Below are positions 17,531 to 47,783 of a DNA stretch of 64,000 nucleotides, piece after piece. The position numbers and the translations under genes are program-made. Numbering within the stretch: the stretch's first letter is position 1; each line of letters starts with the position of its first letter. The stretch spans positions 4,097,001 to 4,161,000 of the forward strand of contig NC_134846.1 of assembly GCF_965363235.1 (NCBI RefSeq). Reading direction: 5' to 3'. The notes under the pieces were generated by a model, which was not told the origin of the DNA, made no database searches, and saw nothing but the letters and a program-made list of their open reading frames with translations. This DNA comes from Mytilus galloprovincialis. Its lineage: Eukaryota > Mollusca > Bivalvia > Mytilida > Mytilidae.

Positions 17531-17712
17531 AACTCACATAAACTCTTGTAATATGATAGGGGGTTAGGGGGGATATTTGTAGATCATAACATTATGTTGA
17601 ATAACAACATAAAAAGAAATTTGTCTAAATATATGTAAAATTAATTCCTAACTTTTGTCTCATTTAGGTTAATACATTGTACGTGTACAAAGTGATGGTT
17701 ACATTACCTTAG

Positions 17713-18284: not shown

Positions 18285-18512
18285 TGTGGTTGTTTGTTTG
18301 TTTAAGTGTTTCATATTTGTTTTTCGTTCATTTTTTGTACATAAATAAGGCCGTTAGCTTTCTCCTTTGAATTGTTTTACATTGTCATTTTAGGGCCTTT
18401 TATATCTGACTATGCCGTATCGGCTTTACTCATTGTTGATTTCTGTGTCATTTTGGTCTCTTGTGGAGAGTTGTCTCATTGGCACTCATACCACATCTTT
18501 TTTTTTTGTAAA
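18285..18512 (+). repeat. Interspersed repeat family B, 5'-truncated copy
   Basis: It matches the 3' two-thirds of the copy at 5370-5735: a TTTGTTTTTCGTTCATTTTT block, AAGGCCGTTAGC, and GTTGTCTCATTGGCA followed by a T run. Confidence 0.65.
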
Positions 18513-18659
18513 AAAATTTAATAACTGAAGAATTTCAGAACAACAAATCATAGGTGATTTGGGACAGGATTATTGTTTTTATAGCCCGGCTCATGCTTTT
18601 TTCACAAAAAAATAAGTTTTTTTTGTTTGCTATTGATTTTAATAATACATGAATAACTT

Positions 18660-18928
18660 TTATATGTATGTTCAAAAGTATACAGAAAACCGCTAACCGG
18701 AAGTCAAATCTGACTTAGAATTTCATCTAACGACGAATATCAGACAGCAAATACACTTCATTCGTAGTATATGTATGTTTATAGTATACAGGAAAACACA
18801 TACTGGAAGTCTAATCTGACTTAAAATTTCATCTAACGACGAATATCAGACAGCAAATACACTTCATTCGTAGTATATGTATGTTTATAGTATACAGAAA
18901 AACACATACTGGAAGTCTAATCTGACAT
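18660..18928. repeat. Tandem repeat, 106-bp unit, about 2.5 copies
   Basis: The unit includes CATCTAACGACGAATATCAG and TAGTATATGTATGTTTATAG. TGAC anchors fall at 18711, 18817 and 18923, giving an exact 106-bp period. The second and third units are nearly identical, the first is more diverged. Confidence 0.85.
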
Positions 18929-19518
18929 ATCAGGACGCCTTTTTCTCGTTTTTCTCCCCAAAAAACTAAATCTGAATAATTATATGAATGGATGACAAAT
19001 GCAATTATGCACTGTACCTATAGGACACAGAGGCATGATGATTAATTTATTGTGGAAAGAAGAGAATTGACACACATCTGGTTAAATAGTATAGATATTT
19101 CTGGCATTATTTCTATTATTCAATATTGGTTGTTTTATAAACCAGATTCTCAACACCATTTCAGTCTTTGTTGAGAAGTTTCATACCAAATTTTATGTTT
19201 TATAATATTATTAACTACTGATCTTGAAATTAAAAAACCACATACAGTCCTTGTTCTGTAACATGTGTAGATATACATGTACATTTGGTTCTGTCAATTT
19301 CTGTTAAGTTTGTAGTACATATGTTCATTCGTAAGTAAGCAAAATGTGAAGTATTAATTCGGTGCTGTGAATGCCAAACCTCTATTTCTATGGCTGAGCT
19401 GGTAGATAAAAAATATTTAAAGAAAGACTTGATGATGTTATATTTGCCTTTGGCATTTCTTTTAATAAATACAATGTGGAATATACATGTATATTGATGA
19501 TCATACATGAATGAAAAA

Positions 19519-19519
19519 A

Positions 19520-19557
<38 letters not shown>
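19519..19557. repeat. (AT)n microsatellite
   Basis: About 19 AT dinucleotides. It creates a spurious Tyr-Ile run in one minus-strand frame. Confidence 0.9.
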
Positions 19558-19559
<2 letters not shown>

Positions 19560-20117
19560 AAAAATATAAAAATATGTATATCCTAATTTATCCTTCCTCA
19601 CTCATTTAATCATACATGCATGTATCGTGTTTTGTCGAATTTACAAAAGATCAATACATGAAAGTTTTGGGCATTCTATTTTAGACATTTACAATGTAGA
19701 AACATGAGAAATATAATGCCACAATTTTAGGTGCTGTAATCATTAGACTAGGCCTACAATTTATCTTTAATGTTCATACAATTTCATACAGTTAGGTTTT
19801 GATGATATCAGTCTTTTGGGTTTTAAAGTAATATTCTTTCATTTGGTTTTTTTTTTTTTAGCTAATTTAGGGATGACTTGATGATGATAAGATATGTCAA
19901 TAAAAAATCGTTATGAACAAAGTACAAGGTTTATAAAAAAAACTGTTCTGGTTACACAAACAATTTGAGTTATATATTTCAATTAAAAAAATTCTTAAAC
20001 ATTCTCAAAGTTGCTCATACCAAGTAAACAGGGACAGTTTGATAGGTTTTCAATTTTTGATATATATATTATTTTATAATAAATAACATGTGATAACCAT
20101 GATAACAGAAATATAAT

Positions 20118-30738: not shown

Positions 30739-30768
30739 GATTTATGAAATAATCACGTTTGAAAATGA

Positions 30769-30781
30769 TTGTTTATATATG
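30769..30781 (-). promoter_or_regulatory. Possible TATA box of the minus-strand gene
   Basis: On the minus strand CATATATAAAC lies about 32-43 bp upstream of the ATG at 30738. Spacing would give a very short leader. A/T richness makes chance occurrence likely. Confidence 0.25.
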
Positions 30782-31524
30782 AGGGGGGCTTACATCAGGG
30801 AGGCCATACCTCCGTCTGAGTGTACGGCAAGGGGTGCAGGGTATTGTCATAAATTCTCTGGAACTATGGAACACTTACCTGTCAGTAGATGTCAACCCTA
30901 ATTAATATACTTTGTGTTGTTGTAACTATTACCTTGTGTTTGTGTACACATATTAATCGGACATTCTAAAAAAGAATACTTTTAATAAACTACATTTCAT
31001 AGTAACAAAGAAAATATATATTTACAATTATTAATACCATGCACTTAGGTTGAAAAAAACTTGATTTAACTTGCATGTAGCTTGCAGGACTGATTTACCT
31101 GTAACATTTGTAGGAACTTAGATTATTTTTTGTATATAAGATGACCGATAGTGCTGTCTCAATTCAGAGTTTTAACTTTAAAAACATGATTAAGTGTGTA
31201 TTAATATAGTACAGAATAGTATAGAATGTCTATCTATAGCTACATCCAACGCTTTACATGTCATGATATAATGATATTCGTCACCGATATCTATTGAGCC
31301 GCAGAAATGACAAAGTCTGTCTTGAAAGGGGTTGGTTATAATAACTTTAGGAAATTATACTGAATATTAAAGAGAATTTAAAGTAGGGATTTTGCAAATT
31401 GTTGAAGGCCGTACGTGACTATAGTTGTTAATTTCTGTTTCAGTTAAGTTAATCTCGTTTCATGCTTTTGGGGAGTTGTCTCTTTGGCAATAATACCACA
31501 TCTCGATCTTTTTTTATTTTTTTT

Positions 31525-31950
31525 ATCTTCTTCTTCTTCTTCCAGGTAAGGAACCGAATTCAAATCTTGAATGTATGAATCCCGCGAAAACTAACGCAAT
31601 GTCGGACAACACAGAAAGTTTTCTCTTGGCTATTTACAGGATAAAACGTTCTCTATATATATACAATTAAAACTATGTACAGGATGTTACTGTCTAAATT
31701 TTAGCAGAGCATGCCTTCAGGGCAGCTCTGAATCCATCAACTGTGTCAGATGATGTTGCGGATGTTGGCAGTTGGTTCCAGTCTCGAATGGTCCTTGGAA
31801 AAAATGATTGTCCGAAGGCGTCTGTTGTGGCCCTTTCTTGGAAGAAGCGGTTTTTACCTCTGGTCCGGCTATCGTTTGGCGTTAGATTAAATTTACTTTT
31901 CATGAAGTTAATTAGTTTTGTATATAGAGCCCGTTTTTAAGTATAGAAAG
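31525..31950 (-). pseudogene. 3' end of a LINE-type retrotransposon
   Basis: Minus-strand residues include FFPRTIRDWNQLP, the conserved tail found at the end of many non-LTR reverse transcriptases, followed by a stop at 31694. After the stop comes about 170 bp of 3' sequence ending in a (GAA)n tract near 31525-31545. An in-frame stop lies just upstream of the conserved part, so only the last exon-like piece survives. It is 5'-truncated, as usual for LINE copies. Confidence 0.7.
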
Positions 31951-32544
31951 CGTACTGACCAAAATAAATTTTTCAAACAATAAAAATCTCATAAAGTTAG
32001 ATTCTATTTCTCATTTTTATCGGACTTGTCCAGTAATTTAATTCCCGAGTAATACGAATGTTTGAACAAATCCGCATTTAGTAAGATTTTATTTCTCATT
32101 AAAGTCGTTCTTGTCCAGTAATACAATCCTTGAACGAATTACGATGTGAAAATAAATTTGCAACCAAACTAATGGACATTGTACATGTACAACTAATCGA
32201 TTTGAAGCGTTCCCTGTATGGAATGGGAAATTATGAACTTTCGGTCCGTACAGAAGACATGTCGTATCGTACCAATGTTGGTTTTCGAAAGCACAAGAAC
32301 AGCGAGAAAGACTATTTCGGAGACTGTTGATCGACACAAAATCCATCCAAACCACGACTAAGTCTTCATGCTCAGATTTTGAAGTGCCAAAACCCCAGAA
32401 GCTTGCTCGTAAGCCTAACAACAGGAAAAGACCAAGGACAGCACGCACACACCCAAGATATTAGACTTATTTTAAAATTGTAAATATTATTATTGTAAAT
32501 ATTGTACATACATGTACATTATCACTGGACTAGTATATATTTGT

Positions 32545-32690
32545 TTAGGGGCCAGCTGAAGGACGCCTCCGGATGCGGGAATTTCTCGCTACATTGAAGA
32601 CCTGTTGGTGACCCTCTGCTGTTGTATTTTATTTGGTCGGGTTGTTGTCTCTTTGACACATTCCCCATTTCCATTCTCAATTTTAAATGT
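32545..32690 (+). repeat. Interspersed repeat, GGGGCCAGCT family
   Basis: It reads GGGGCCAGCTGAAGGACGCC, then TCTCGCTACATTGAAGACC, then GGTCGGGTTGTTGTCTCTTTG and a CTCAATTTTA end. It is the clearest plus-strand copy of this family in the window. Confidence 0.65.
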
Positions 32691-33244
32691 CATCTCTTTA
32701 ACTATGTGTATTGTTTATTGAGAATAAAATTTGATATTTAGTAAACATTGTTTGTGTTTATTATGTTGAAATGGAGAGAAAGAAAAAATAACAAAGAAAA
32801 ACAAAAATAGAACTTGTTACAGATTTTTTTTATTTTCTTTATTCATAAACTGCAGAATACAAAATATGAATTTAGCCGTCAAAATGAAAAGTAAATTGAA
32901 AAAGAACATCGAATGGGTTATCTTATTTTTTTTCCATGAACATACAATTCACTATTTTCACAGTGCATAATTTAAATTTAACTACATTAAACATGTTAAA
33001 CAATCTCAACTATTTTAAACGCAACATTGTACAAACAACACAATTCATAAACATCAATAAAGATAATCCAATTAATTTTGTTGATTGGATAATTCACGGC
33101 TCAGTAGTTGTGTAATCAGTGACACGTGCCCTCATTATTTTAAAAAAGTTAACATATCTATCTAAGTTCGATTTCAAATTCTACCAAAATTTAATTCTTA
33201 TATAAGCAGCATGTAAGGAATATATACATACATCCTGTGTGCAA

Positions 33245-33350
33245 ATGCGACGACTATAAAGGGTCCTGAGTGCACTTTGTATGTCCTGAGTGCACTCAGG
33301 AGGTCCTGAGCGGTGTTTAGACGTATCCGACTACCGCTAGGCCATTTCAA
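33245..33350 (-). repeat. Short tRNA-like or SINE-like segment with CCTGAGTGCAC units
   Basis: On the minus strand TGGCCTAGCGGTAGTCGGAT resembles a tRNA A-box region. It is followed by three CCTGAG words, one inside the palindrome TCCTGAGTGCACTCAGGA. No convincing B box is seen, so a functional tRNA is unlikely. Confidence 0.3.
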
Positions 33351-34059
33351 CTCAAAATATATAAGATATCGTTGCATCAGTAAAACTTTGAATCTTTTTT
33401 GACAAAAACTATTAGAATTTAAGGCTGCCCTGTTTTTACAATAACTGTTTACTTGTTATCATTTCAATGAATATCAAGTAATATTTGTCGATGGACGGTT
33501 GTTAAGTTAATGCACGGTATTGTGAATTTTTTTTTCACAATTGAATTTATAGAACCTTTTGTTAAGATTCATTGTCCTATGTATCAAATTAAAATAGCTT
33601 TCTATTTCCAGTTCTTTGGCGTTTCAACACCACTGCATGCTCATCCAATGAAAAAAGGAAAGTCATAATATTTATTTTATTAATAATATAATCTTTTATT
33701 CCTAAGCAATACAACTTACAAAAAATAATTATTACAAATATTCAGTTACATCAGTGAAATATATTTACATTTAAACAATTAGTCAGATAATCATATAAGT
33801 ATACCCATGCATATAACAGTACAGCAGAGTATGATCAAATATAACACATTTTTAAATGAATTTAATTTCGTGCCTTCTCAGAAATAATAACCTCCCTTGA
33901 ATTGTTAAGTTGCTTTATATTATGAACAGATACTGGTGAGCACCCAGCCACTTTAAAAGGGGGTCCCATCCCAGCACAAAAAAAGGGGCGAGTTCCAACT
34001 ATATGTCCCCATTCAAATACATTATCGTCTAAACAGTTTAAGATTCGACGGTTTTCTTC

Positions 34060-34245
34060 AACAATATGGTTTGATAAATTTCTTTCGAAGTTCATTATAC
34101 TTTTCACATACTAAAATAAAATGATAATCATCTTCAATTACTCGTTTATCACACATATTACAAAATCTCGGACATCTCTCAATATTATGAAATCGACAAG
34201 TTTCTATATTCAAACAGTGAGCAGATATATGCGGTATTTACCAAT
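34060..34245 (-). pseudogene. LINE tail remnant with CCHC-like motif
   Basis: On the minus strand a frame reads ETCRFHNIERCPRFCNMC followed by IEDDYHFILVC, the Cys/His pattern near the C-terminus of many non-LTR reverse transcriptases. The frame breaks within a few dozen codons, so it is dead. A similar tail on the plus strand is at 36560-36990. Confidence 0.65.
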
Positions 34246-34673
34246 AAATGGTTTTATCAATATAATTTTAAAACAGCTTGATCTAAATAAATTGTTGTTG
34301 TCAAATACATCTATGCAACATACATTTAGGCGAGATTTCAAAAAAATTAGTTCATTTCACTATTAAAGCTACCGTTTAATCTATCTTTGAACTCAATTAA
34401 AAACAAATTCACATTGTTTACACCCTGATGCATAACCGTACTTGTAAAACGTAGTCATCCGTATCAATAAATTGTTTCATATCAAAATTGAAGTGCATGA
34501 GTATTGTTAACGTCTGGGATGAGTGTGAGAAATCTCTGTTGATGGAAATAAACAAAATTTAGCTGAATTTGTATTATTCAATTAATGAAAAGGCAAGCTA
34601 GTTTGTGTTTAAAATGATATTGTTGGAATGGATTTATAGCATGAAAAATGTGTGTAACCGATTTTACATTGAC

Positions 34674-34713
34674 CAAGGATTTGTATAGTAAGGTCTTACT
34701 ATACAAATCCTTG
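34674..34713. repeat. Perfect hairpin, 19-bp arms and 2-bp loop
   Basis: The left arm is CAAGGATTTGTATAGTAAG and the right arm its exact complement, separated by GT. A related hairpin (15-bp arms, one mismatch) is at 52547-52579, sharing GGATTTGTATAGT. Confidence 0.85.
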
Positions 34714-34829
34714 CACTGACTTGGACTGCGAATATGAAAATCATATCTTTGTGAAATCACATTCTACAAGATGACATATTTTGTAAGTACGTTAACCTTT
34801 TATTCTTATTCTAGTATCTTTGAAATGCA

Positions 34830-34972
34830 TTTTATAGCTGACTATGCGGTTTGAGATTTGCTCATTGTTGACGGCCGTACGGTGACATGTAGTTGTTAAT
34901 ATCTGTGTCATTTTGGTCTCTTGTAGACAGTGGTCTAATTCGCATTCATACCACATCTTTTTTTTATATTTA
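34830..34972 (+). repeat. Interspersed repeat family B, 3' part
   Basis: Blocks TTTTATAGCTGACTATG, TGCTCATTGTTGACGGCCG, GTCATTTTGGTCTCTTGTAG and a CATTCATACCACATC end are followed by a T run. Confidence 0.65.
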
Positions 34973-35239
34973 TATAGCTATATTTCTTACAACTGCATGT
35001 TATGTGTACATGTTCCAGGCTCGTGTCGCTGAAAGAGGTCTCCTTTCAAGTTTGAAAATATGTGAATAGCTCGGGAAAACTATCAGAAATATAGTATGAT
35101 AAAAAAAATTTAGCAAAGTTCCCACTACTCTTTTTGTAAACTTTCTTGCTATTTCCGGGTGTGTTTTAATCGAAGAATGTTCTCTCTATTGACACTATGG
35201 TATATAAACTCATCATATATACCATGATTGACATTTTAT

Positions 35240-35370
35240 ATTGACGGAAGACGTGCGTTTCGTCTAAAAAAAATAAGACTCATTAGTGCGCTCGAATAAA
35301 AAATTTAAAAAGGCAAAATAAAGTTCGAAGTTGAAGAGGATTGAGGACCAACATACGTATTCCCAATTAC
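35240..35370 (+). repeat. Interspersed repeat family C
   Basis: It includes GTGCGTTTCGTCTA, GACTCATTAGTG and GTTGAAGAGGATTGAGGACC. Related minus-strand sequence lies at about 49385-49500 (GCGCATTTCGACAAGCAATG) and a plus-strand piece near 57775-57850. It may be a SINE or MITE; I cannot assign a class. Confidence 0.5.
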
Positions 35371-35390
35371 ATCCACCGTAAGGTCATCTA

Positions 35391-35549
35391 CAGTGGCGGA
35401 TCAAGAATTTTTCATAAGTGGGGGCCCACTGACTGACCTAAGAGGGGGCCCGCTCCAGTCACGCTTCAGTGATTCCCTATATAAGCAACCAATTTTTTCC
35501 CAAAAAGGGGGGGCCCGGGCCCCCTGGGCCCCCTCTAAATCCGCCTCTG
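35391..35549 (+). mobile_element. 159-bp MITE with 5-bp target duplication ATCTA
   Basis: It starts CAGTGGCGGATC and ends ATCCGCCTCTG; ATCTA flanks both sides (35386-35390 and 35550-35554). Internal G/C runs (GGGGGCCC and GGGCCCC) form a further inverted repeat. It is the most complete CAGTGGCGGATC-family copy in the window. Confidence 0.85.
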
Positions 35550-36559
35550 ATCTATTCCTAAGATAGAAAAGCCTCTTGTTAAAAAATAAAAAAAAATGTT
35601 AACTTTAAATTTATAATTATGAACATATCAATGATAACTCTTCCATCCTTCAATTGCAAACCACATAAAACCTAAACAATTCAAGTGAACTTATAAATTA
35701 AATGATGAAAAATCGAATGGCGAACAAAATAGTATAATAGATTTGGTTTGGCAATCTTCGTTTTGAGACCTTATTGGTGGGCTAGCTAGCATAAAGAATT
35801 ACATGTACTTTAAATGTATAAAATACATATTTTCTACAATGATATATAATTAGGAATGGAAATTAAAAGGCTTATTTAAAAACATAAAAAGGATCTTTAT
35901 TTTTATATCTGAATATCCTCGAAAATATCTTTGCGTTTGAAAGCTCTTTTAATATATTTTACACGTATATCGAAATGTGTTCATACCAATTGTCCCGCTT
36001 TATACCGAACCCGCGTAACCTTAAAATTAGGACATTACACGAACAAAACATTACAATTTTGTTTATTACAGATATTTTATCATATCCACGGTTGAATGCA
36101 CAATATCCCCACCAAGAAAACCGTCTACTGTTAGAGGAGGGACGACAGCCTAGATGTCGTGTGCAAAAATAATAATTACTTGGTACGGTTTCAGCTTGTG
36201 TATTGTAATTTTGAATAGTATAGATCGATTCGTGTTTTAAAATCAAATAAACGCTACTGCTTTCACTGATGACCGAAAAATTACTTTAATATATATATAT
36301 AAAAAAACAATGTATTTGTTACATGTTTTTGGTATAAAATTATATATTTTGAAGATCATATTCCGTAATGTTATGACCTGAATTCTATTCGATGTCTATA
36401 AAGCAAATTAAATCTAATTGCAATGTCTTTTTCAATAATATATTAGAAAAAAAGATAAATTAAGGACTTAAATGAAAGTAATAAAATTCTCCTATACAAA
36501 AATATTAAGATTAACTTGAAACAAGAATTTTACCTAAAACATAACCATTCTGACTCCAG

Positions 36560-36990
36560 AAAACTATGAACAAAATTTATTATTAGCGAACTCACTCTTT
36601 TAAAAAAAAAGGTCAAACATTCCTAGATATCAGAGATATGCAAATTCTGTAATGAGATTGAGGACGAAAAACACTTCTGTCTCAAATGCTCTAAATATAA
36701 TTTTTATAAAAAAATTTTTTTTGACTCAACGAAAATCAATTCGGAGTGGAAAAACACTGCAAAAGATGATACACTTAAACTTAGGATATTACTAAACGCC
36801 ACATCTCGCAGTCAAATTAAAAATACAGTTTCCTTAATATGAGTCTTTAGAACTGAGGACGGGAGACCCAAAACAATAATTTCAACTGCTACATTTTGTA
36901 TTTTAATATTGTACTGTATATTTTTGTATATATGTTATGTTTGTCAGAGATCAGTTTTTTTTTATTTATATGACAATAAAAGTATTTGAT
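36560..36990 (+). pseudogene. LINE tail remnant and 3' UTR
   Basis: A plus-strand frame reads NIPRYQRYCKFCNEIEDEKH and KCSKYNFYKK, the Cys/His tail of non-LTR reverse transcriptases. It is followed by a 3' UTR with AATAAA near 36973. It is 5'-truncated and cannot encode an active protein. Confidence 0.65.
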
Positions 36991-37094
36991 TATAAAAATT
37001 CAAGGCAAACGTTTTGTTAACATTTCGTTAGAAATCATTGAAATATATAACAATTTTTAAGAATATTATTCATACACACAAAAGTCATTATAAT

Positions 37095-37195
37095 AAAATT
37101 GAGAATGGAAATGAAGAATGTGTCAAAGAGACAACAACCCGACCATAGAGAAGACAACAGCAGAAGGTCACCAACAGGTCTTCAATGCAGCGAGA
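37095..37195 (-). repeat. Interspersed repeat, GGGGCCAGCT family (3' part)
   Basis: In plus-strand reading it starts AAAATTGAGAATGGAAATG and continues GTGTCAAAGAGACAACAACC and GGTCTTCAATGCAGCGAG, the complement of 32590-32690. Confidence 0.65.
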
Positions 37196-39835
37196 AATAA
37201 TGTCTGCATCAGTTGATGCATATATATTCTTACGACGCTAAAAACGGCGATTTTCCAGTAAAATTTCAAATGTAATTGTCAAATACGTGACAAAATACGT
37301 AACCCTACGACATAAAACATTTTTTGGGTATTTTGATTTAATTCAAGATAAAAATAAACACTTGATCATGACAAAATTTTCTTTGAAAATTAGTGTTATT
37401 TGTGCATAGGTCGACTTCGTTCTCTAAGACTATTTCTATTTTTTTGTGTAAAGAATGAATACAATATAACCGATTTTGTGTCAAATGCAGTTTGGTACGA
37501 AATAATAGCTTAAAACCTTTCAAACTATTCTAGTAATTTATCCATGCCGTATGACGTAGGTTATGATTAGCCCTCGGGGAAAAACATTCAAAATTAATGT
37601 AGGGATAATTATGACAAGTACGTGTATTCCCGACAAACAATGACAATTACCAAATTCGTTTATTACGTGTACATGTATGCATTTTGTATAACCATTAAAT
37701 CTGTGGCACCAAATCTATATATGTATAACTGTATAAATTACCCAAGCAGGAACATATATATAATAGTTAGATTTACTGTAACCAGATTCACCTTTTATAT
37801 TTCTTGACACGTGTGTTGTGAGGTTGATTTATTTTTAATAACTAAATAGATAAAAAAAAAATTAACGAATATTTGATACATAATTGTAGATAATACAAAA
37901 CTGGCTGTATGACATTATAAGTAATAACACGGGCCATGCTTGTAAAAACTGTGTGATAGTGGTTAGTTCGTATAAGTCAACGTTCGGTATAGTCAGGGCT
38001 CGAGAGACTAGTCAGGGATTGTTTTACACCAGGAGCCTTTGAATTTAAAAACATGGAACTATGTTATTGCCAATCAGACAATTATTGTACAACTAAATAC
38101 TATTTTGGACTCTTTGGCTCTCATACCACAATGCACATCTTCTTAATCTGTCTTTACGAATACGTCGCTTCTATATATCATAGTCCATATTTAGCAAACG
38201 ACAGTGTGAATATTTTGTGTATGAGTGTCTGAAATGATTCGATGACATACTAGTGTATAATGCAGGCTGTAATCTTTCAAATTTCTTCCTTTATATGTCA
38301 TGCATCAAATAAAAAGTACTATTATACATGTGAAAATTAAGGTGACAAATCTAAGGTAAAGTAGTGACTAAGACCAACGCGTCCGTTGTGTATATACCGC
38401 AAAGGATTTCTTAGTGCACTAAGAAGAAAGTTTAAGCACACAGGACTCTAAAAAAAACGACCTTTTAAGGCCCCAAAGAACATGCCAGGATAAAAGAGAA
38501 TATTAGTATATAACTCATATTAATGGTATCAATAGATATAGTAATTGTGAAGTAAAAAGTCTTTTCAATCAGCGTGTGCCACTCGGCACGTCACCAACGG
38601 CTTAATGCAAATTCCCAATCATCACAATAAAAAGGGCTTTCAAACTAAATGGTAGACCCGACCCCCAACATAGAATGGTTAAAATTTTGAGTTGGAGCCA
38701 TTAAACTGCTCTATAATTTGACGTAATTTGTCTCGAAAGCAGTACACTGCACTGTGAGTATTTGTTAGATAATCACGCGCGATTTTATTATTTAAAGCTT
38801 TAAGGAAATGCTGTACGAAATAACTAAGATCAGTTTATTTGTACCCGTAACAAAAAGGAGAAAAGATTGGGCTGCCTCTCTGCAATTTTGTCTAGTTACT
38901 AAAGTAAAATCAAACTTTAATTCTCCGGCAATGCACATGTTGATATATATATTGTATAGGTCATTCCAACACTTACACTTGTTCTTTTATTTGAGTGCCG
39001 GGCTATTTAATTACCATTTTAATTCAAAGCTTGGATTTGAATCCTTCATTCTCCAGTACGTTTGAATTTCTACATACATCACAGAAAGTAATGAAAGTTG
39101 TGTGTTAAACGTCAATGCGAAAGCAAACAATCCATTAAAGAAGACTTTTAGAAGGCACATATTTATCTTTCGTCTGACAGCACGTATACACCACAGTTAT
39201 CGTAAATTATATAAACATATAAAAAAAAATCGAACAAAAAAACATTATTTTTTTAGACAAAAAGAGAAAAGAACTGATAAGTGCGGGTTATCCATGCGCT
39301 TTTTAGCTTGCCTCCTTTATTTATGTTTCGATATTTCAAAACTTAATTATTCTTTTTATCTATTATAACACGTGAAAACCACACCGGTGAGACCATATAT
39401 GTCATAAACTTACAGCTGGTCCTGAACATGCATGAAGTATTTGCCACTGGACTTTAAACAACAATCAATCACACTACAACTTATAGTATACTATAGTTGT
39501 GAAATACAAAATGTATATTATAATGATACAATTAGCCAAATAAATAGAATACAAATACACACTACTTTATATAACTGACACACTCTCTAAACTATATAAG
39601 TAGAGAAGCGAAAAGTTTCCTGTGAATACTAAACAACCTTTCGAAACAGCACATGTTTTAATGGGTTTCCATGCGGCGCTCAAATATTTTGCATGGTCTT
39701 TGGGTACTATAGTGTTTAGACATATATGATATTGTAAGAACCTTTAACGTATAATAGATTCAAATTCGTTATTTTCCTCAATAAAAAAAAACCAAGCATG
39801 TATATTAAAAACTGACGGTCAGACATCACTAATAC

Positions 39836-40845
39836 GTGTATATGTTGTGTACAAGTTATCATTTTGTACAAATTATAATTTGTACAAAAATATTGTACAA
39901 ATTATAATTTGTATTTTGACTTTGTACAAATTACAATTTGTGCAAAATGTGCCTGTACAAATTACAATTTGTACAAAATTTGACCAAAATTCACTTATAA
40001 CTTGTACAACAGTTTTAAATATTGATTTTGTTGAAAAATTAATTGATTCACATAATAGAACCGTAATTAACTGACCACACAATAAACCTTATAACAAAAT
40101 ACACTGTTTTACACAACTACAAAAGACACATTGATCTTCGAAATTTTTGAAAGAAAAAAAAGGAAAGAAGTATTATATTTTTTTCAAATTTTTCATTCAT
40201 AAACTACTTTTTCTTAAAAAATATCATTCAATAGTACTGCTTGATTAGCTCTTATCGTTATTTGGAAGATTTTTCTTTTATTCAGAAACTTTGCAAAAAC
40301 GGTAATATTTGTAAAAAATTGATATTTTGGATTGTGAAAGATCATGTAGAGCATTTTGATGATCGTGAAAAGGATCAAGAAAGATTTGTTACCACTTATT
40401 CGTTATTTCAAAAAGTCTATGAAAACAATCAAAACATGTCGTCATCAATGTTCTTTCATGTTAAAGCAACACTTGGTACAGCACTTCTTAATTTAGAAGT
40501 GAGAGTCAAAAGATGTTGTGCAATACCTGATTCCATAACATCACCTGCAGAAACGAATGATAAAGAACGACTTTTGAATTTTGTAACTTAGATGTACTGT
40601 GAGGTCATTTAATAGCAATTCAATAATGTGTATCAATGCTTTTTTTTTACCAAAATCCATATGATAAATTATTGTACAAGTAATAAGTGAATTTTTGTCC
40701 ATTTTTGTACAAATTGTAATTTGTACAAGCACTTTTTGTACAAATTACAATTTGTACAAGGTCAAAATACAAATTATAATTTGTACAATATTTTTGTACA
40801 AATTATAATTTGTACAAAATGATAACTTGTACACAACATATACAC
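39836..40845. mobile_element. 1.0-kb foldback element with 174-bp inverted repeats
   Basis: The arms are 39836-40009 and 40672-40845. Each arm is an array of about four palindromes built on TTGTACAAATT and AATTTGTACAA, so each arm can itself fold. Both outer ends read GTGTATATGTTGTG inward. The target duplication is not clear: AC/AC or TA/TA are possible. The unique middle holds an open frame at 40241-40591. The superfamily is unknown. Confidence 0.8.
40241..40591 (+). CDS. Unrecognised exon-like ORF inside the foldback element
   Basis: The 116-codon frame has no obvious ATG at its beginning. A TTTTTCTTTTATTCAG tract ending at about 40284 looks like a 3' splice site, so the coding part may be a terminal exon starting near 40285 and ending at the stop at 40589-40591. 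Its composition is protein-like (charged, with VKDHVEHFDDREKDQERF and HVKATLGTALLNLEVRVKR stretches), unlike nearby random frames. I do not recognise the family. It could be a captured host exon, the remains of the element's own transposase, or chance. Confidence 0.35.
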   Translation: MISSYRYLEDFSFIQKLCKNGNICKKLIFWIVKDHVEHFDDREKDQERFVTTYSLFQKVYENNQNMSSSMFFHVKATLGTALLNLEVRVKRCCAIPDSITSPAETNDKERLLNFVT

Positions 40846-41042
40846 ACATTAATTAATTCTTTATTAACGTTTAGCCCTACGGCACCTTTTTATTAAGAAT
40901 GATGATGAGAGTAATAAAATAGGTATGTACTTTCTTACGTTATGGATCAATGATTTTGTTACCTGTTGACCCGGTTGATTACTAGCACGTGCCATTGAAC
41001 TCGACCATTTTAACCAAAACAGATTTTGTTTTTTTAAATTAA

Positions 41043-41066
41043 CGCCATATATATATATATATATTT
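41043..41066. repeat. Short AT microsatellite
   Basis: A CCATATATAT run of about nine TA units in otherwise plain A/T-rich DNA of the right arm of the CACTA element. The rest of 40846-41873 shows a family B fragment at about 41395-41440 and nothing else I can name. Confidence 0.7.
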
Positions 41067-41873
41067 ATATTGATACTAAGTACTGTATATATATTATATA
41101 GATTAGAAAATAAATATTAGAAGGAAACATTGTTCGAATGAAAATTTGTATACGGTGATACTTTAACACCGTCCCGACAGAGACTGACTGCAGTATTATG
41201 ATCAGCTTTCGGAATCCGGAAAGTCTTTTTCGAATTTCCGGATGTCGGGAATATTTTTTTCCAAGTTTAATAGAGTAACTCGCACGAAAAAAAAAATAAA
41301 CATACGGTAAACTAGGATTAATCAACAGACAACGAATTAAAGCAACTGTCATATACATAAAACAAAAATATGCATGTGTTAATTTGGCTCCGCTGCATTT
41401 CTGTGGATTGTCTCATTGGCAATCATACCACATCTCCTGAAGTAACTTTTTTTAGGTTACGTTAAGGATTTTCCGTTACTAATATTCAAATACGAAAAAC
41501 TATTTCACCGGTGTTCACAACATTTTAAGGTTAAATTTATGGCATACATATTGGAGTGTATACAATTAACATACGCCCTTGCATTTAATTTATTTTCAAT
41601 ATATATTTATATAAACTAACATTTTATATTAAAAAATAAACAACATGTATAGACGAATAATTTATTTGTTCCTCAACAGAACAAGAAAAAAAATAAAGAA
41701 TCAACAGAAGATTTAATCTTTTTTATTAAATAATCCGGCAAAATATACTTCAAATTCTAATATTAAAATACATATATACATATTAATCTAAAATTCATTA
41801 TCGAGTAGAAGGGGCGCAACTCGTGGTATCAAACCGGTATACTGAACGATCTAAACAGGGTCTGAAAATTTTG

Positions 41874-42123
41874 AACGTAATTTTGTATCCATGGTCTGTT
41901 TTGGTCTGACACGCTCTTAACGGATCTAAACAAGCCGCTAGACGATTCAGTCTTTTCCGTCTTGACATGCCTTAACGAACTGATTTACCTGGTGAGGCTA
42001 TCGATCTGAACGACGACTGAACGACCTTAAATATCTTGACGAATTTCTCTAGCGGTAAATCCAGTCAATCAAGATGCGATCAGACCAAAATGACCGTTTC
42101 AGACTGAAATCGTGCTACTAGTG
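41874..42123 (-). repeat. Right terminal inverted repeat of the CACTA element
   Basis: This is the reverse complement of 10903-11152 with about 10 mismatches in 250 bp, ending CTACTAGTG at the insertion junction. YGTYAAGR-type motifs recur at equivalent places. The duplication AGT (42124-42126) follows. Confidence 0.9.
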
Positions 42124-45100
42124 AGTGCTGGTAAGAAAGAAAGATGGAACCGTGCGCTGGTGCATTGACTACAGAGCTTTAAATGACAGAACAATAAAAG
42201 ATTGCTTCCCTATTCCTATTATTGAGGATTGCTTGGACTCACTCCAAGGCACCACCACGTTCTGTACATTGGACCTTGCCAGTGGCTATTATCAGATTGA
42301 GCTTGAGCCAGAAGACCGAAAGAAAACGGCGTTCATTACAAGATATGGGTTGTTCGAGCACACCAGAATGGGAATGGGCCTTTGTAACGCCCCAGCAACA
42401 TTTCAGCGGGCCATGCAACTCGTTTTGAGAGGACTTACTTGGACACAGGTGTTAGTTTATCTTGATGATGTCGTGGTTCTCGGTCGCAACTTCGAGGATG
42501 GTCTCATTAATTTGAGGGCTGCATTTGAAAGATTTAGACAGTATACCCTGAAGCTGAAACCAAAGAAGTGTCAACTGTTTCAGCCTGAAGTTGAGTTTTT
42601 AGGAAAACTGGTGAGTGCTAATGGCATCTCCGTTTCTCCATCTAAGATAGAAGCAGTGAAAAAGTGGCCAACTCCCAAGTCAAAGAAAGAACTCATGTCA
42701 TACCTAGGGTTTGTCAATTACCACCGGGATCACCTGCACAACTATGCAGAAATGACTGCATGTCTATACGACCTTGCTCACCAGACAGGAGAAGCTGAAT
42801 GGCAACAGTGTCACGAAAAGGCGTTCCAACAGTCAAAAACGGCGTTAATAAGTGCACCTTGCCTGACATATCCTAATGCCAATGATAAATTCATATTAGA
42901 TACAGATGCATCTGACACCACCATAGGTGCAGTTTTATCACAATTACAAAATGGTGAAGAAAGGGTTATATGCTTTGCAAGCCACGTTCTATTGAAGCCT
43001 CAGCGTCGTTATTGTACAACAAGGAAAGAGTTACTGGCCGTTGTTAAGTTTTGTCGGCATTTCCGTCACTACTTACTTGGTAGACGTTTTATTTTACGCA
43101 CTGATCATAACAGTTTGGTATGGCTAATGCGTTTCAAGCATATTGAAGGACAACTAGCGCGATGGTTGGAAGAATTGTCATCATTTGACATGGAGATCAT
43201 CCATCGTCCAGGAAAGAAGCATTGTAACGCTGATGGTCTAAGTCGCATCCCAGACGATGTTCCTGAATGTGACTGCTATAGGGCAGGACTTGATCCTACA
43301 ACACTGCCATGTCATGGTTGCAAATATTGCCTACGAGCTCACGAACAGTGGAGCAGATTCGGAAATGACGTAGACGACGTGATTCAATTGGCTACTAAGT
43401 CAGTGATAGCATCAGTACGCACGGTTTCAGTAGTGGCTGAAAATGATAAGGACATGTCCACTGACCAAGAGCCCACGGCTCTGGCAGGGGATTGTCACTC
43501 AGATCCATCACCAAGTTTAGACGATACTCTACCATATGCTGATGGCAATCCATGTAGCAACTGGGCACCTGAATACCCACCTGAACAGTTAAAGATATTT
43601 CAGCAAGAAGACCCTGATTTGGCTCCAATATTACAATGGATGGAGGAAGACGTCGAGCCAACACAGGCTGAACTACGTTTGCAAAGTAGGGCAACTAGGT
43701 CGCTTTGGTTGTGTAGACCTTGTTTTGTCATGTTTAACCATGTTTTATACTACAAATTCATAGGTTGTCCAGCACGCCAAGGTCTTTGTTTAGTTGTTCC
43801 ATCAGAGTTAAAAGGAGAGGTGCTTAAAAATTGTCATGACACCAAAACATCAGGACACTTGGGTCAGAAAAAGACGCTCGATAAGTTAAAGCAGGCTTTT
43901 CTGTGGTATAACATGCGCAAAGATTGTGACGATTATGTTAGTACCTGCGCCACCTGTAGTCAAAATAAAAAGGCGCATGTGCAACCTAGAGCACCACTTG
44001 GGCAGTTCCATGCTGGGTATCCGATGGAGAGAGTACATCTCGATATTCTTGGACCTTTTAATACAAGTAATAGCGGCAATAATTATGTCTTGATGATGGT
44101 GGATCAGTTCACAAAATGGGTAGAGATGGCTGCATTACCTGAACAGACTGCAAAGATGATTGCTGAGAAATTTATTGTGCATTTCGTGGTGACATTTGGG
44201 TGTCCATTGGAAATCCACACTGACCAAGGACGAAACGACAGTGACTTATTCAAAACACTATGTGATGCCTTGGAAATTGCCAAAACCAGGACAACCCCGT
44301 ATCATCCCTCATCAAATGGCCAGGTAGAGAGGTACAATACCATTGTATTGGCAATGATAAGATGTTTTATTGAGAAAAATTGTCGTAACTGGGACAGAGA
44401 CTTGCCTTTCTTGTCTATGGCAATGCACTCAATGGTGAATAGGCAAACTGGATTTACGCCGAATCAAATGATGTTGGGTAGAGAGACTATCCAACCTGTT
44501 CATCTTCTCCTTGGCATGCCACAGTACGGTCAGAACAGAATGACCCCCAACGTTTGGGTACAACATTTAGTCGGAAGGATGCAAAAGATTCACGAATTTG
44601 CAAGGCACAGTCTGCAAACCTCGCAACTAAGACAAAAGCGGGATTATGACCTCAGAGTTGTTGAACATAAATATCAACCAGGCGATTTGGTGTATAAGGC
44701 GGACTCAACTACAAAAGTCGGACAGAGCAAGAAGCTCAAATCACCATGGTGTGGACCTTTTCTTGTCGTGGCTAGTAGACCCCCATTGTACACTATCCGA
44801 GGAAGAAAAGGAGATTCAGTAGTGCACCATGACAAATTGAAACTTTGCAACGACAGGGATATCCCGACCTGGATCAAAAGACTTAGGCATGCGTTATTTC
44901 AAGCTGAAAGTGAAATGGATGAGAGCTGGGATCATCTTGATGATACAATACCCTATGGTGTTGACTTTAATGTTCAGGGCATGTTTGATGCAAATCAGCC
45001 CACTTTTGATAGAGTTGTTTTACCCCAGTCATTAGGTGACCCGTCATATACCCATACTCCATTGACACAAGAACTGGAACAGGGGCCCCAGTTCGATACA

Positions 45101-45316
45101 GTTGCAGCTTTAGATGCTACTAGTAATAGCATTGATGAACCTCCAAATTTAGACTTGGGGGAAATTTCAAAATCGGATAACAGTTTCAGTGGGGACTCTG
45201 TAAATGTCAAAGTTAGCAGCACAGATGACGAGAAGAGGCCCTCGGCCTCTCTGTCTTCTGATCACACCTCAAGGTATGGTAGGCCAATCAGATGCCCACT
45301 TCGATACCAAACGTAA
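42124..45316 (+). CDS. pol: Pol, 3' fragment: reverse transcriptase, RNase H, integrase
   Basis: It continues the pol frame beyond the insertion, about 1063 codons, and is intact to the stop. RT landmarks: VRKKDGTVRWCIDYR, FCTLDLASGYYQIEL, the catalytic YLDD (42458-42469) and a FLGKLVSANGI block. RNase H shows DTDASDTTIGAVLSQ, ELLAVV and FILRTDHNSLVWL. A short linker follows, then integrase with an HHCC zinc finger (HDTKTSGHLG and CATC), Asp residues in VHLDILGPF and HTDQGR, and Glu in NGQVERYN, the DDE triad. The C-terminal part contains YQPGDLVYK and VVHHDKLKLC but no clear chromodomain. The enzyme copies element RNA to DNA and inserts it. The fragment lacks its own start codon in context, so it is stranded by the insertion. 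Confidence 0.92.
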
Positions 45317-45454
45317 TAGATATTGTGTGGGATAATTTCATATGTATATAATGTATATATGTACTTTAGCATGTTCGTACTTAGTAATAAATGTGCATCA
45401 TTTTCGCTATTGTGTTTTTAATCATGTTATGTTTTGATTTCCTCTCGTTCTAGG
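45317..45454 (+). promoter_or_regulatory. Gap between pol and ORF3 with a probable splice acceptor
   Basis: A pyrimidine-rich TTTCCTCTCGTTCTAG tract ends at 45453, immediately before GATGG carrying the ORF3 ATG (45455). This is what an acceptor for a spliced, env-like subgenomic RNA would look like. No donor is established. Confidence 0.45.
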
Positions 45455-47248
45455 ATGGAAGAGGGGTCTCGTTCAGACCAAGATGTGTTGTCACTGAGTC
45501 CACACAGCGAGTGGCAGGAAAGTAAATCTGATTGTACCGATCTTGACGTGGCAGATCTAATGGTTATAGATGAAGTAGGTCCAGATGAAGACGTATGTCC
45601 AGATGAAGGAGAAGGTCCAGCTGAAGAAGTAGGCCCAGCTCAAGAAGTAGGTCCAGATTACCAGGCTGCTGGTGTAGCTTCTGGGGCCCTTGGCCCTGTT
45701 GAGACACACAGCAGTGTGGTTGAAGATACTAGTATTGGTATATACCATAGTGAGATCGATGAGGAGAGAAGCGGCGCGGTAGCAGTTTCGAAAAACAGAT
45801 TACGGCAGTGTCCAATATGTGGGATGGTGTCCAGGGAAAAGACACGCCGTCATGTCCTCAAAAGACACCTTCCATGGTTTTGGTCGGGTGCTACTGCCTG
45901 TTGGGATTGCTGTGAGCAGGAAATCCAGGCATCTTCTCTAGCCAGGAGACACACAGAGGAACATAGGATTGGTTGTTTCTTTGATGAAGAACACCTTCAT
46001 TTGTGGTGCCAGTTGGTGAGTGGCTCTCTTCACCTGGTTAAATCGTGGTTTGGCTTAACAGATCTTGAAGGCTTGTTACAGTATGTACTTGACCGGCAAT
46101 TACATGAAACCGTCACCAGTGGTTTTAGTGACCAAGAACAACAGCTACTGGTGTTCTATGCACAGAACTATAGTCCTGACCGCCTGTCGCACATCAGTGC
46201 TAACCCTCCCAACCATGTCATTAGTCTGACCAACTGGGAGATTATGACTAGCCTATTACGCAGAGTGGGACCTGCTCAACAACAGTCTCTTTTGTCCTGT
46301 GACAAATTCGTAACTTACGAGGGTGCATGGATTGTGGACACGGTACCAGTACTTCTAGAGCCATTTGTCTTTGTAGACAGTCATTTTCATTTAGATTTAA
46401 TCCTCAAGAGACTACATTTTAACACATTTTTACATATGAGCTCACGAATATCTCCGGCTGAGCATAACAACACCTTTTACTACGGAGTTGCCAACTATGT
46501 ATTCCCAGAACATTGGGACAGCTGGTCAGTACAAGTTGGAGCTGCAAAGTCAGTGTATGTATCATTCGGAATACATCCCCATATTGCTGCCAGAGGAGTC
46601 AGTCACAAGCAACTTGAGGACTTGGACCACCTGTTGGGAAACTACAAGTGCGTAGCAGTCGGCGAAATAGGCCTTGACTTCACAACCAGGTGCGGATGCA
46701 AGCGATGTCACACTCCACAGCAATGTCAACAGCGAATGCGGGACTGTCAGGAAAAGGCCTTGTTGGAGATGCTGCAGATCGCACAACGTAGACAGTTGCC
46801 TGTCATCTTGCACTGTCGTGATAGAGGTAGTGGTAATGCTGCAGCCCGTGTATTGGCCATCATTCGCAGTGGTTTTGCTGAATTGCACTATCATCGCCAT
46901 TGCTTTGATGGTAGTATTGAGGAATTGAGAGAATGGCAAAGCCTTCCTAATGTTGTGTTTGGAATCACGGGCAAGTTTCTAAAGGACACGAACACAAACA
47001 GTGATGCGATCTCAAGGATCTTACCACATCAGTTAATCCTTGAGTCCGATGCCCCGTTTCTTTCGCCAATGTCATGTTGTGAGGTGAACCATCCCTGGAA
47101 TTTGATAGATGTTGCTTTGGCAGTGAGTCAGCGCAGAAACATTCCGTTGAACATTTTAAACTGGATGGCTAATGATAATGCCCTCCGATTCTACGGTATC
47201 CCAAAGTTAAGACAAGAGCCAGCTAGCTGGGGCCCTAGGCCTCGTTAG
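45455..47248 (+). CDS. Retrotransposon ORF3: zinc-finger and TatD-type nuclease protein
   Basis: It encodes 597 residues, intact, inside the LTRs and co-oriented with pol. Residues 1-90 are acidic with repeated EVGPDE-like units. Residues 119-138 form a Cys2-His2 type finger (CPIC, then HVLKRH), followed by a Cys/His-rich CWDCCEQ region. From about residue 305 the TatD hydrolase fold is clear: DSHFHLD (D308, H310, H312), FGIHPH, GEIGLD (E404), LHCRD (H453), HCFDGS (H482), GITGKF and ESDAPFLSP (E530, D532). These are the metal ligands of the TatD family, which hydrolyses DNA ends and is linked to DNA repair and apoptosis. The start is the first ATG after a probable splice acceptor; the frame extends six codons further upstream without ATG. 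How it serves the element is unknown: trimming cDNA ends or countering host defences are guesses. Confidence 0.85.
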   Translation: MEEGSRSDQDVLSLSPHSEWQESKSDCTDLDVADLMVIDEVGPDEDVCPDEGEGPAEEVGPAQEVGPDYQAAGVASGALGPVETHSSVVEDTSIGIYHSEIDEERSGAVAVSKNRLRQCPICGMVSREKTRRHVLKRHLPWFWSGATACWDCCEQEIQASSLARRHTEEHRIGCFFDEEHLHLWCQLVSGSLHLVKSWFGLTDLEGLLQYVLDRQLHETVTSGFSDQEQQLLVFYAQNYSPDRLSHISANPPNHVISLTNWEIMTSLLRRVGPAQQQSLLSCDKFVTYEGAWIVDTVPVLLEPFVFVDSHFHLDLILKRLHFNTFLHMSSRISPAEHNNTFYYGVANYVFPEHWDSWSVQVGAAKSVYVSFGIHPHIAARGVSHKQLEDLDHLLGNYKCVAVGEIGLDFTTRCGCKRCHTPQQCQQRMRDCQEKALLEMLQIAQRRQLPVILHCRDRGSGNAAARVLAIIRSGFAELHYHRHCFDGSIEELREWQSLPNVVFGITGKFLKDTNTNSDAISRILPHQLILESDAPFLSPMSCCEVNHPWNLIDVALAVSQRRNIPLNILNWMANDNALRFYGIPKLRQEPASWGPRPR

Positions 47249-47546
47249 CAATTTTTCAATAATATAGATTTTGATGGATTCTGTAAATAGTTTTATCAGT
47301 ACCAGGAAGGTTCCGATATATGTATATGCGTTTCTTTTGATATGGATGACTTTGAGTTTCTTAATCAACTCAATATTTTATACAGAAACTGATTTTCATA
47401 CAGAGTGTTTTAATTTGCATCTCTAATTATTACCCGCAACATCAGCGAGTTATGAACTAGCGTTCAATTTTTGGCGTATTTTATCTTGTTTTTAGGTTTA
47501 TTTTTTTAGTTTAAATATGTGACTGATTCTACACGAAGGGGACGGA
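47249..47546 (+). other. Retrotransposon 3' untranslated region and polypurine tract
   Basis: About 300 bp of non-coding sequence after ORF3. The purine-rich GAAGGGGACGGA at 47535-47546 abuts the 3' LTR and is the expected plus-strand primer. Confidence 0.7.
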
Positions 47547-47783
47547 TGTGGTGCCGCTTATGTATACATAGAAGAACCAGTCCATATCTTACAGTATGCC
47601 AAGCAATACCTCTGGACGACTGACGTCACGAGGATTCTCTTCTACTTCCGTTTACTGTATTAACCACATGTATTATTATATTGCTGTCTACTGATTCATC
47701 AGATATACAGAGATTTACAGATATTAAAGGTATTCTGTTTATTACACATACACTTTACTTATTTGTACCATATCGGCACAACA
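47547..47783 (+). repeat. 3' LTR of the gypsy-type retrotransposon
   Basis: 237 bp, identical by eye to 6511-6747, starting TGTGG and ending CAACA, followed by the target duplication ATAG at 47784-47787. Confidence 0.92.

What the first reader, a model, noticed from the sequence alone, without database searches (positions are those of the whole stretch)
45455..47248. A gypsy-type retrotransposon carries an intact TatD-family nuclease as a third ORF
The 597-residue ORF lies between pol and the 3' LTR, in the same orientation, with no stops. All usual TatD metal-ligand positions are visible (DSHFH, GEIGLD, LHCRD, HCFDG, ESDAP). TatD hydrolases are DNA-processing enzymes and I know of no established role for one in an LTR retrotransposon. 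The occupied position is that of env. The intact frame in an element with identical LTRs suggests it is kept by selection and not freshly captured debris.
Basis: partly seen in the sequence, partly recalled or inferred. Interest (0 to 1): 0.92.

Follow-up and report, generated by a model that had tools for sequence, protein, structure and literature searches.

The report
TatD nuclease in mussel gypsy retrotransposons
A branch of mussel retrotransposons (virus-like jumping genes) carries its own TatD-family nuclease gene where a retrovirus would carry its envelope gene, and natural selection has preserved that gene's protein sequence.

Summary
Window 45455-47248 is an intact 597-codon ORF with a complete TatD domain, between pol and 3' LTR of a Ty3/gypsy-type element with identical 237-bp LTRs. 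The LTRs lie 41 kb apart because a 31.2-kb CACTA transposon is nested in the RT.

It is not a one-off capture. In this Mytilus genome 41 of 41 scored integrase places at least 48% identical to this one have TatD downstream, 10 of 23 at 45-47%, 0 of 41 below 45%. Integrase and TatD trees of 14 elements share one topology. dN/dS is 0.02-0.25 among five intact copies. A second lineage has protease-RT-RH-IN-PHD-TatD in one frame. Two related loci keep the N-terminal ORF3 module but end in a ubiquitin-like domain. The TatD groups with host TATDN2-like genes.

Most likely it is an element-encoded nuclease acting on the element's own replication intermediates; the substrate is inferred and no activity or RNA was measured. 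Closest kind: bdelloid LTR elements with a DEDDy-exonuclease ORF3. No paper listed by my searches describes TatD in a retroelement.

The parts
6511..6747 (+). 5' LTR, 237 bp, TGT...ACA; preceded by ATAG at 6507-6510
6748..6770 (+). putative primer binding site (TTGGCGTCGTCGAC...), tRNA not assigned
   Evidence: sequence directly
7422..9758 (+). gag ORF, 778 codons
   Evidence: Retrotrans_gag E 2.9e-5, 24.7 bits against cut-off 24.1
9728..10902 (+). protease and N-terminal RT, cut by the nested insertion
   Evidence: RVP E 7.5e-4, 20.2 bits, just under the cut-off 20.7
10903..42123 (.). nested CACTA DNA transposon, 31,221 bp, 274-bp terminal inverted repeats 94% alike, AGT duplication; not part of the retroelement but interrupts its RT
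   Evidence: Transposase_21 ORF at 25235-26707
42127..45316 (+). rest of pol: RT, RNase H, integrase, C-terminal tail
45274..45453 (+). candidate intron: donor CTCAAG|GTATGG in the pol tail, acceptor TTCTAG|GATGG before ORF3; removal joins pol and ORF3 in frame (...HTSR-MEEGSR...)
   Evidence: same junction in M. coruscus models P0001 and P0033, another one in the M. edulis model P0035
45455..47248 (+). ORF3, 597 aa: disordered N-terminus, two C2H2-like patterns, helical domain, TatD nuclease domain
45809..45964 (+). two C2H2-like zinc-finger patterns of ORF3 (residues 119-138 and 149-170); by residue pattern only, Pfam finds no zinc finger here
46370..47197 (+). TatD domain (residues 306-581) with H310, H312, E404, H453, H482, D532
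47535..47546 (+). polypurine tract GAAGGGGACGGA
   Evidence: sequence directly
47547..47783 (+). 3' LTR, identical to the 5' LTR; followed by ATAG at 47784-47787

Best explanation
This is the third ORF of a Ty3/gypsy-type retrotransposon clade that carries a TATDN2-like TatD nuclease behind an N-terminal module with two C2H2-like zinc-finger patterns and a helical domain, in the position where env sits in retrovirus-like elements. Shown: ORF and domain; place inside identical LTRs; presence downstream of every scored integrase at least 48% identical; shared history with pol; purifying selection; conserved metal ligands. Supported but without RNA evidence: ORF3 is made from a spliced message, either alone from its own ATG or, in this subfamily, also as an in-frame Pol-ORF3 fusion. 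Inferred: the zinc fingers tether the protein to the element's nucleic acid or particle, and the two-metal TatD site trims RNA or DNA ends in RNA:DNA hybrids or damaged cDNA during reverse transcription or integration, an accessory replication enzyme alongside RNase H. I put the statement without the substrate at 0.9 and the hybrid/cDNA-processing role at about 0.4.
For: Place and domain. Genome-wide association: TatD downstream (same strand, within 8 kb) of 14/14, 27/27, 10/23, 0/17 and 0/24 integrase places at >=60, 48-59, 45-47, 40-44 and <40% identity; 40 of the first 41 gaps are 1.1-1.8 kb, one is 5.8 kb. Of 20 TatD loci fetched, 16 have gypsy pol upstream. LTR pairs: 10 of 14 hold TatD, 282-303 nt from the 3' LTR in 6 of the 10. 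Co-history: one topology of the integrase and TatD trees for 14 elements, Mantel r 0.979, p 1e-4. Selection: 10 pairs among five copies of this subfamily, omega 0.02-0.25, all Fisher p < 0.02; five pairs of other subfamilies 0.08-0.16, p < 1e-8; pol in five pairs 0.10-0.32. Fused Pol-PHD-TatD in 3 loci of one lineage. Ligands: HxH, H453, H482 and D532 in 17 of 17 element proteins (eight lineages), E404 in 16 of 17. Splice junction as in two M. coruscus models. Beyond this genome: P0017 (TatD) and P0129 (pol) each lie on one Logan contig of 8926 nt. Biochemistry: TATDN1/3 are 3' exonucleases and AP endonucleases (PMC10085689 passages); TATDN2 is described as an RNase that resolves R-loops (PMC12709183 abstract and passages).
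Against: No activity, transcript or protein was measured. Splice-acceptor scores before the ORF3 ATG, against other ATGs of the same locus, are strong in only part of the eight loci (seven subfamilies) tested: upper-tail fraction 0.0, 0.014, 0.03 and 0.047 in four, 0.078-0.155 in three, 0.55 in L027. The M. edulis model P0035 uses another pol/ORF3 junction. One element protein, L014, has lost the catalytic Glu. dN/dS was computed on intact frames only; L014/L016 (0.37, p 0.14) and L034/L035 (0.51, p 0.29) are not significant, and in the fused lineage the ORF3 module (0.22-0.51) is less constrained than its integrase (0.07-0.11). Half of the ten LTR-flanked copies of this subfamily have a broken ORF3. 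Of the 45-47% class 13 of 23 lack TatD, so it is not needed in every related element. Pfam does not recognise the zinc fingers.
Confidence: 0.85

Rival explanations
1. ORF3 acts mainly against the host: the zinc-finger TatD protein resolves R-loops or degrades host RNA or DNA (silencing RNAs, damage signals) in the germ line, so that the element is tolerated or expressed.
For: Affinity to TATDN2-like host genes; in medaka tatdn2 is expressed in germ cells and its loss raises R-loops (PMC12709183 abstract and passages).
Against: Pol-TatD fusion in one frame in L030, L034 and L035 ties the enzyme to replication proteins rather than to a free effector.
Confidence: 0.2
2. ORF3 is a DNA-repair enzyme for the cDNA: an AP endonuclease that nicks abasic sites left by deamination or oxidation, comparable in role to retroviral dUTPase (recalled).
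For: AP endonuclease activity was found in human TATDN1 and TATDN3 and in the three E. coli TatD paralogs (PMC10085689 passages); class II HxH site conserved.
Against: Nothing in the sequence separates this from 3' trimming or RNA cleavage; TATDN2 is described as an RNase.
Confidence: 0.25
3. A one-off or recent capture of a host TatD gene, carried as debris.
For: Host-like TatD loci exist in the genome (L010, L011, L013, L031).
Against: Presence downstream of 41 of 41 close integrases, matching trees, purifying selection, 24-25% identity to three host-like loci.
Confidence: 0.02
4. ORF3 is kept for binding, not catalysis: the zinc-finger and helical module is the essential part and the TatD barrel is a scaffold.
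For: The N-terminal module is also present in two related loci with a ubiquitin-like end instead of TatD; L014 lost the Glu.
Against: Metal ligands are kept in 17 of 17 (Glu 16 of 17) element proteins, some only about 27% identical to this one.
Confidence: 0.1
5. The direction is reversed: animal TATDN2 descends from a retroelement TatD.
For: Two TATDN2-like host rows fall in one clade with the element TatD (100/99.9); the exclusion of these host rows from the element group is weak (63/62), and a tree with them inside and L030 outside is not rejected, p-AU 0.25.
Against: [quoted passage not shown]
Confidence: 0.08

Closest known systems
Bdelloid rotifer Vesta/Juno LTR retrotransposons with a DEDDy-exonuclease ORF3 (PMC5408684; abstract and passages seen)
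   Same: LTR element with a nuclease ORF3 in place of env; those authors say that most Vesta and Juno members lack bona fide env and that ORF3s are typically expressed from spliced messages
   Different: Different enzyme: RNase D-like DEDDy, not TatD; the authors report no significant departure from neutrality in their intragenomic analysis, whereas here dN/dS is far below 1; here there are also Pol-PHD-TatD fusions
TATDN2 and class II TatD nucleases (PMC12709183 abstract and passages; PMC10085689 passages)
   Same: TatD fold, HxH motif, one clade with mussel TATDN2-like genes in my trees
   Different: Here encoded by a mobile element, behind two C2H2-like patterns and a helical module; many copies
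Orchid Ty3/gypsy elements with an m6A RNA demethylase domain (PMC9289625; search listing with title and start of abstract only)
   Same: Enzymatic domain gained by a gypsy lineage
   Different: Different enzyme and host kingdom; called recent in the title
Gypsy-type errantiviruses with env (recalled; PMC4276936 seen only in the listing)
   Same: ORF3 between pol and 3' LTR, expressed by splicing (recalled)
   Different: No env domain found here; ORF3 is a nuclease
QatD anti-phage TatD nuclease (NCBIfam match E 2.5e-12, 46 bits against a cut-off of 230)
   Same: TatD nuclease in a genetic-conflict setting
   Different: Bacterial defence gene; far below the model's cut-off

Membership tests
Ty3/gypsy-type LTR retrotransposon | LTR pair with TG...CA ends and a short target duplication | tested here: met
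   237/237 identical LTRs, ATAG both sides; one other copy has identical LTRs and GTAC both sides
Ty3/gypsy-type LTR retrotransposon | gag and PR-RT-RNaseH-IN in the gypsy order | tested here: met
   Pfam order (protease just under its cut-off) and, in one frame
Ty3/gypsy-type LTR retrotransposon | primer binding site matching a host tRNA | tested here: inconclusive
   TTGGCG... follows the 5' LTR; not matched to a tRNA
Ty3/gypsy-type LTR retrotransposon | place among named clades (Mag, CsRn1, mdg1, errantivirus and others) by RT tree | not tested
   no reference set of named elements was used
TatD nuclease family (PF01026) | match over the whole profile above the curated score | tested here: met
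   140 bits against 27, positions 1-253 of 253
TatD nuclease family (PF01026) | TIM-barrel TatD fold | tested here: met
   AF2 model and Foldseek, best E 8e-15
TatD nuclease family (PF01026) | metal ligands conserved | tested here: met
   H310, H312, E404, H453, H482, D532
TatD nuclease family (PF01026) | metal-dependent nuclease activity | not testable with these tools
   needs purified protein
TATDN2 subgroup | class II HxH motif | tested here: met
   HFH at 310-312; class definition from PMC10085689
TATDN2 subgroup | common clade with TATDN2, apart from TATDN1 and TATDN3 | tested here: inconclusive
   clade with two mussel TATDN2-like genes apart from TATDN3 and bacterial rows, 100/99; L031 and L011 are called TATDN2-like by resemblance, and no TATDN1 or vertebrate TATDN2 was in the tree
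env-bearing retrovirus-like element | ORF3 is an envelope glycoprotein | tested here: not met
   Pfam finds only TatD and AF2 a TatD barrel; no membrane-segment predictor was run
Bdelloid-type DEDDy ORF3 | DEDDy exonuclease homology of ORF3 | tested here: not met
   Pfam and NCBIfam find TatD-type families only

The most novel reading that the evidence does not exclude
In a large molluscan gypsy clade the env slot has become a plug-in cassette: an ancient zinc-finger and helical targeting module with an exchangeable effector, a TATDN2-like nuclease in one lineage (split or fused to Pol-PHD) and a ubiquitin-like domain in a sister lineage. The nuclease works as a second hybrid-processing enzyme beside RNase H, a function that no paper listed by my searches describes for a retroelement.
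Probability: 0.35. Interest if true: 0.85.

Novelty: new variant of a known kind. Interest (0 to 1): 0.73.

Why it matters
Accessory enzymes in LTR elements are seldom shown to be kept by selection (my general knowledge; the bdelloid study found no departure from neutrality). Here one genome gives a sharp clade boundary, matching trees, low dN/dS and two architectures. If the enzyme is active, it would add a nuclease family to the known retroelement toolkit, give a natural system for asking what a retroelement needs beyond RT, RNase H and integrase, and warn that genes annotated 'TatD' or 'TATDN2' in mollusc genomes may be retroelement pieces.

Tried and rejected
Relatives in viral contigs: four scans gave one locus, L001, a 26% match over residues 399-580. 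Relatives of pol in genome contigs: none. PHROGs, PADLOC and any retroelement library were not searched. A first splice join with wrong coordinates gave a stop; it was redone correctly.

Considered and rejected: chance ORF (608 open codons with a full domain); host gene with introns (L031 matches in scattered exons, the element ORF does not); LTR copies without the ORF as evidence against it. Of the four such pairs, three are 4.1-4.3 kb long. I read one, L033: it keeps gag (in two frames) up to about 300 nt beyond the gag end and the 3' end, with no nucleotide match to the rest of protease, to RT-IN or to ORF3 apart from a weak match at the very end of ORF3. The other two short pairs were not read. 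The fourth pair, C5:53799144/53840648, matches the LTR at 75 and 70% and is doubtful.

Limits of counts: the integrase search scored 107 of 2450 first-look candidates, so the low-identity classes are a sample; I gave 115 of the 144 TatD places and merged 109 integrase matches to 105 places. Of the 13 places in the 45-47% class without TatD I read three (L044-L046). dN/dS used intact frames only, and pairs share copies. The paired trees used 13 of the 16 fetched loci with pol (L016, L020, L026 left out) plus the window. In one search two bacterial rows were dropped because their long branches met.

Literature: TatD with retrotransposon+gypsy (1 paper), LTR retrotransposon (2), transposable elements+Mytilus (0), Ty3 (0), retroelement (2), transposon (53, 25 listed), and two broader searches (36 papers, 20 listed; others listed). 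No listed title or abstract start describes a TatD retroelement. Repbase and most subscription journals were not searched, so an entry may exist there.

Full report
WHAT IS THERE. The ORF is real and complete: 597 codons from ATG 45455 to a stop ending at 47248, one Pfam family over its whole profile, TatD_DNase, E 1.2e-40. An AlphaFold2 model from 21 aligned relatives (mean pLDDT 78.1, pTM 0.68) gives a disordered N-terminus (1-113), a region with two C2H2-like patterns, a helical domain and a confident TatD barrel. Pfam does not recognise the zinc fingers; they rest on the residue pattern. Of Foldseek's 17 best solved structures 14 are labelled TatD or deoxyribonuclease, including human TATDN3 and TATDN1, and 3 are labelled uncharacterized metalloprotein or amidohydrolase.

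THE ELEMENT. A 237-bp sequence after a polypurine tract at 47535-47546 recurs, identical, at 6511-6747. Both copies are flanked by ATAG. Between them lie gag (7422-9758), protease and the start of RT (9728-10902), then RT-RNaseH-integrase (42127-45316), then ORF3. The 41-kb span comes from a nested CACTA transposon at 10903-42123: 31,221 bp, 274-bp inverted ends 94% alike starting CACTA, a 3-bp AGT duplication and a Transposase_21 ORF inside. Less the insert the element is 10,049 bp; four other LTR pairs span 9,992-10,040 bp. So the copy in the window has a broken RT and an intact ORF3.

THE HOST. Close named proteins are Mytilus coruscus P0001 (91%), M. edulis P0005 (96% over 57% of the query) and M. 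trossulus P0002 (70%). The assembly behind the window has 1.385 Gb. It is a Mytilus, species not fixed.

NOT ONE COPY BUT A CLADE. PF01026 has 144 matches in this genome (a lower bound that includes fragments and host exons). I fetched the 20 best loci: 16 have gypsy pol upstream of the TatD ORF; L010, L011 and L013 look like host genes; L028 gave no pol match. TatD proteins at these 16 loci are 27-97% identical to this one, their pol 35-97%. In a separate search with this integrase (383 aa), 109 matches merge to 105 places. TatD lies within 8 kb downstream on the same strand in 14 of 14 at 60% identity or more, 27 of 27 at 48-59%, 10 of 23 at 45-47%, 0 of 17 at 40-44% and 0 of 24 below 40%; 107 of 2450 candidates were scored, and 115 of the 144 TatD places were used. 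The boundary is clade-like. The LTR of this subfamily has 31 matches forming 14 pairs; 10 pairs hold TatD and 4 do not. Of those 4, three are short (4.1-4.3 kb); the one I read, L033, is a gag-only derivative. The fourth is a doubtful pair. Of the 10 copies with TatD, 5 (the window's included) have an unbroken ORF3, one has a stop and four are shifted or decayed.

SHARED HISTORY AND SELECTION. For 14 elements (13 fetched loci and the window) the integrase tree and the TatD tree have the same topology, and their identity matrices correlate with r 0.979 (Mantel p 1e-4). Nei-Gojobori dN/dS of ORF3 is 0.02-0.25 in the 10 pairs among five intact copies of this subfamily (all p < 0.02), and 0.08-0.16 in five pairs of other subfamilies (p < 1e-8); L022/L023 gave 0.09 without a test. 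It is 0.37 in L014/L016 (p 0.14), and 0.27, 0.22 and 0.51 in the three pairs of the fused lineage, the last with p 0.29; the integrase of those three pairs gives 0.11, 0.11 and 0.07. L021/L023 has no synonymous difference. Pol in five of the other pairs gives 0.10-0.32. Only intact frames were used, and pairs share copies. Metal-ligand positions: HxH, H453, H482 and D532 are kept in 17 of 17 element proteins from eight lineages, E404 in 16 of 17, L014 having lost it.

ARCHITECTURE. Three loci of one lineage (L030, L034, L035) carry pol, a PHD finger, the N-terminal ORF3 module and TatD in one reading frame (Pfam on L030). Of 13 places in the 45-47% class without TatD I read three. In L044 and L045 an ORF3 follows pol (in L044 pol ends in a PHD finger). 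It matches a profile of the TatD-bearing N-terminal modules, first zinc finger and helical part, with 34.3 and 49.8 bits, against at best 3.7 bits for 400 shuffled sequences. Its C-terminal domain is not TatD: a weak model (mean pLDDT 67.8, two sequences) matches mostly ubiquitin folds, E 5e-3 at best and none below 0.001, and Pfam finds nothing in either ORF3. L046 had no ORF of 120 aa or more. So the N-terminal module is shared and its effector end differs.

EXPRESSION. In this subfamily a donor in the pol tail and an acceptor one base before the ORF3 ATG join pol and ORF3 in frame. M. coruscus gene models P0001 and P0033 show the same junction, the M. edulis model P0035 another. Acceptor-like sequence near the ATG is clear at some loci and not at others. 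No RNA was examined.

ORIGIN. With 29 or 27 TatD domains, element TatD and two mussel TATDN2-like genes form one clade (100/99) apart from TATDN3 and bacterial TatD. Whether all element TatD form one group without those host genes is unresolved (63/62), and the reverse placement is not rejected (p-AU 0.25); L030 and L011 are long branches. L031 and L011 are called TATDN2-like by resemblance; vertebrate TATDN2 and TATDN1 were not in the tree.

OTHER SPECIES. The first protein search gave 36 relatives, among them named Mytilus and oyster proteins (Crassostrea angulata P0027, a cluster of 153 members; Magallana gigas P0032) and unnamed ones. P0017 (TatD, 42% identical) and P0129 (pol, 53%) are each on a single contig of 8926 nt, most likely the same one. 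P0023, a M. coruscus model, joins an integrase zinc domain to TatD of another subfamily. The element context of the oyster proteins was not seen.

HOW IT PROBABLY WORKS. The tested TatD enzymes are 3' exonucleases on single strands and AP endonucleases on duplex DNA, with two metals (PMC10085689, passages). TATDN2 is described as an RNase that resolves R-loops, and medaka tatdn2 protects germ cells from R-loops (PMC12709183, abstract and passages). A TATDN2-like enzyme tied by zinc fingers, or by fusion to Pol, to an element that replicates through RNA:DNA hybrids suggests removal of RNA remnants or trimming of ends in the cDNA. That step is inference.

NOVELTY. LTR elements with an enzymatic ORF3 are known: DEDDy exonuclease and GDSL esterase in bdelloid rotifers (PMC5408684, abstract and passages). 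A TatD nuclease ORF3, the fused Pol-PHD-TatD form and the effector swap appear in no title or abstract start listed by my searches. Hence a new variant of a known kind.

Noticed in passing
window 10903-42123: A 31.2-kb CACTA (Transposase_21) DNA transposon with AGT duplication is nested in the RT of the retroelement; only seven ORFs of 110 aa or more were listed in it.
   Followed up: partly
window 39821-40038 and 40643-40860: Inside the CACTA element, a pair of 218-nt inverted arms 89% complementary, 604 nt apart, rich in GTACAAATTATAATTTGTAC palindromes: a likely further nested foldback element.
   Followed up: no
L044 452-2017 (+); L045 1867-3132 (-): Related gypsy elements whose ORF3 has the same N-terminal module but a ubiquitin-like C-terminus in place of TatD.
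   Followed up: partly
L030, L034, L035 and L044: A PHD finger at the end of gypsy pol, possibly a chromatin-targeting module (Pfam on L030 and L044).
   Followed up: partly
L033 (C2:79961600-79965800): Gag-only 4.1-kb derivative with LTRs 95-97% alike to this subfamily; two more pairs of similar length exist.
   Followed up: partly
P0137: A gypsy pol related to this one (48%) is deposited under the bacterium Candidatus Thiodiazotropha taylori, a clam symbiont (recalled): probably host DNA in a symbiont assembly.
   Followed up: no
PMC6962438, figure legend passage: The giant squid Hox cluster contains predicted genes named TATDN2, POGK and ZMYM1; the TATDN2 one could be a TatD retroelement piece.
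   Followed up: no
window 54126-54613: Tandem array of a 68-bp unit.
   Followed up: no
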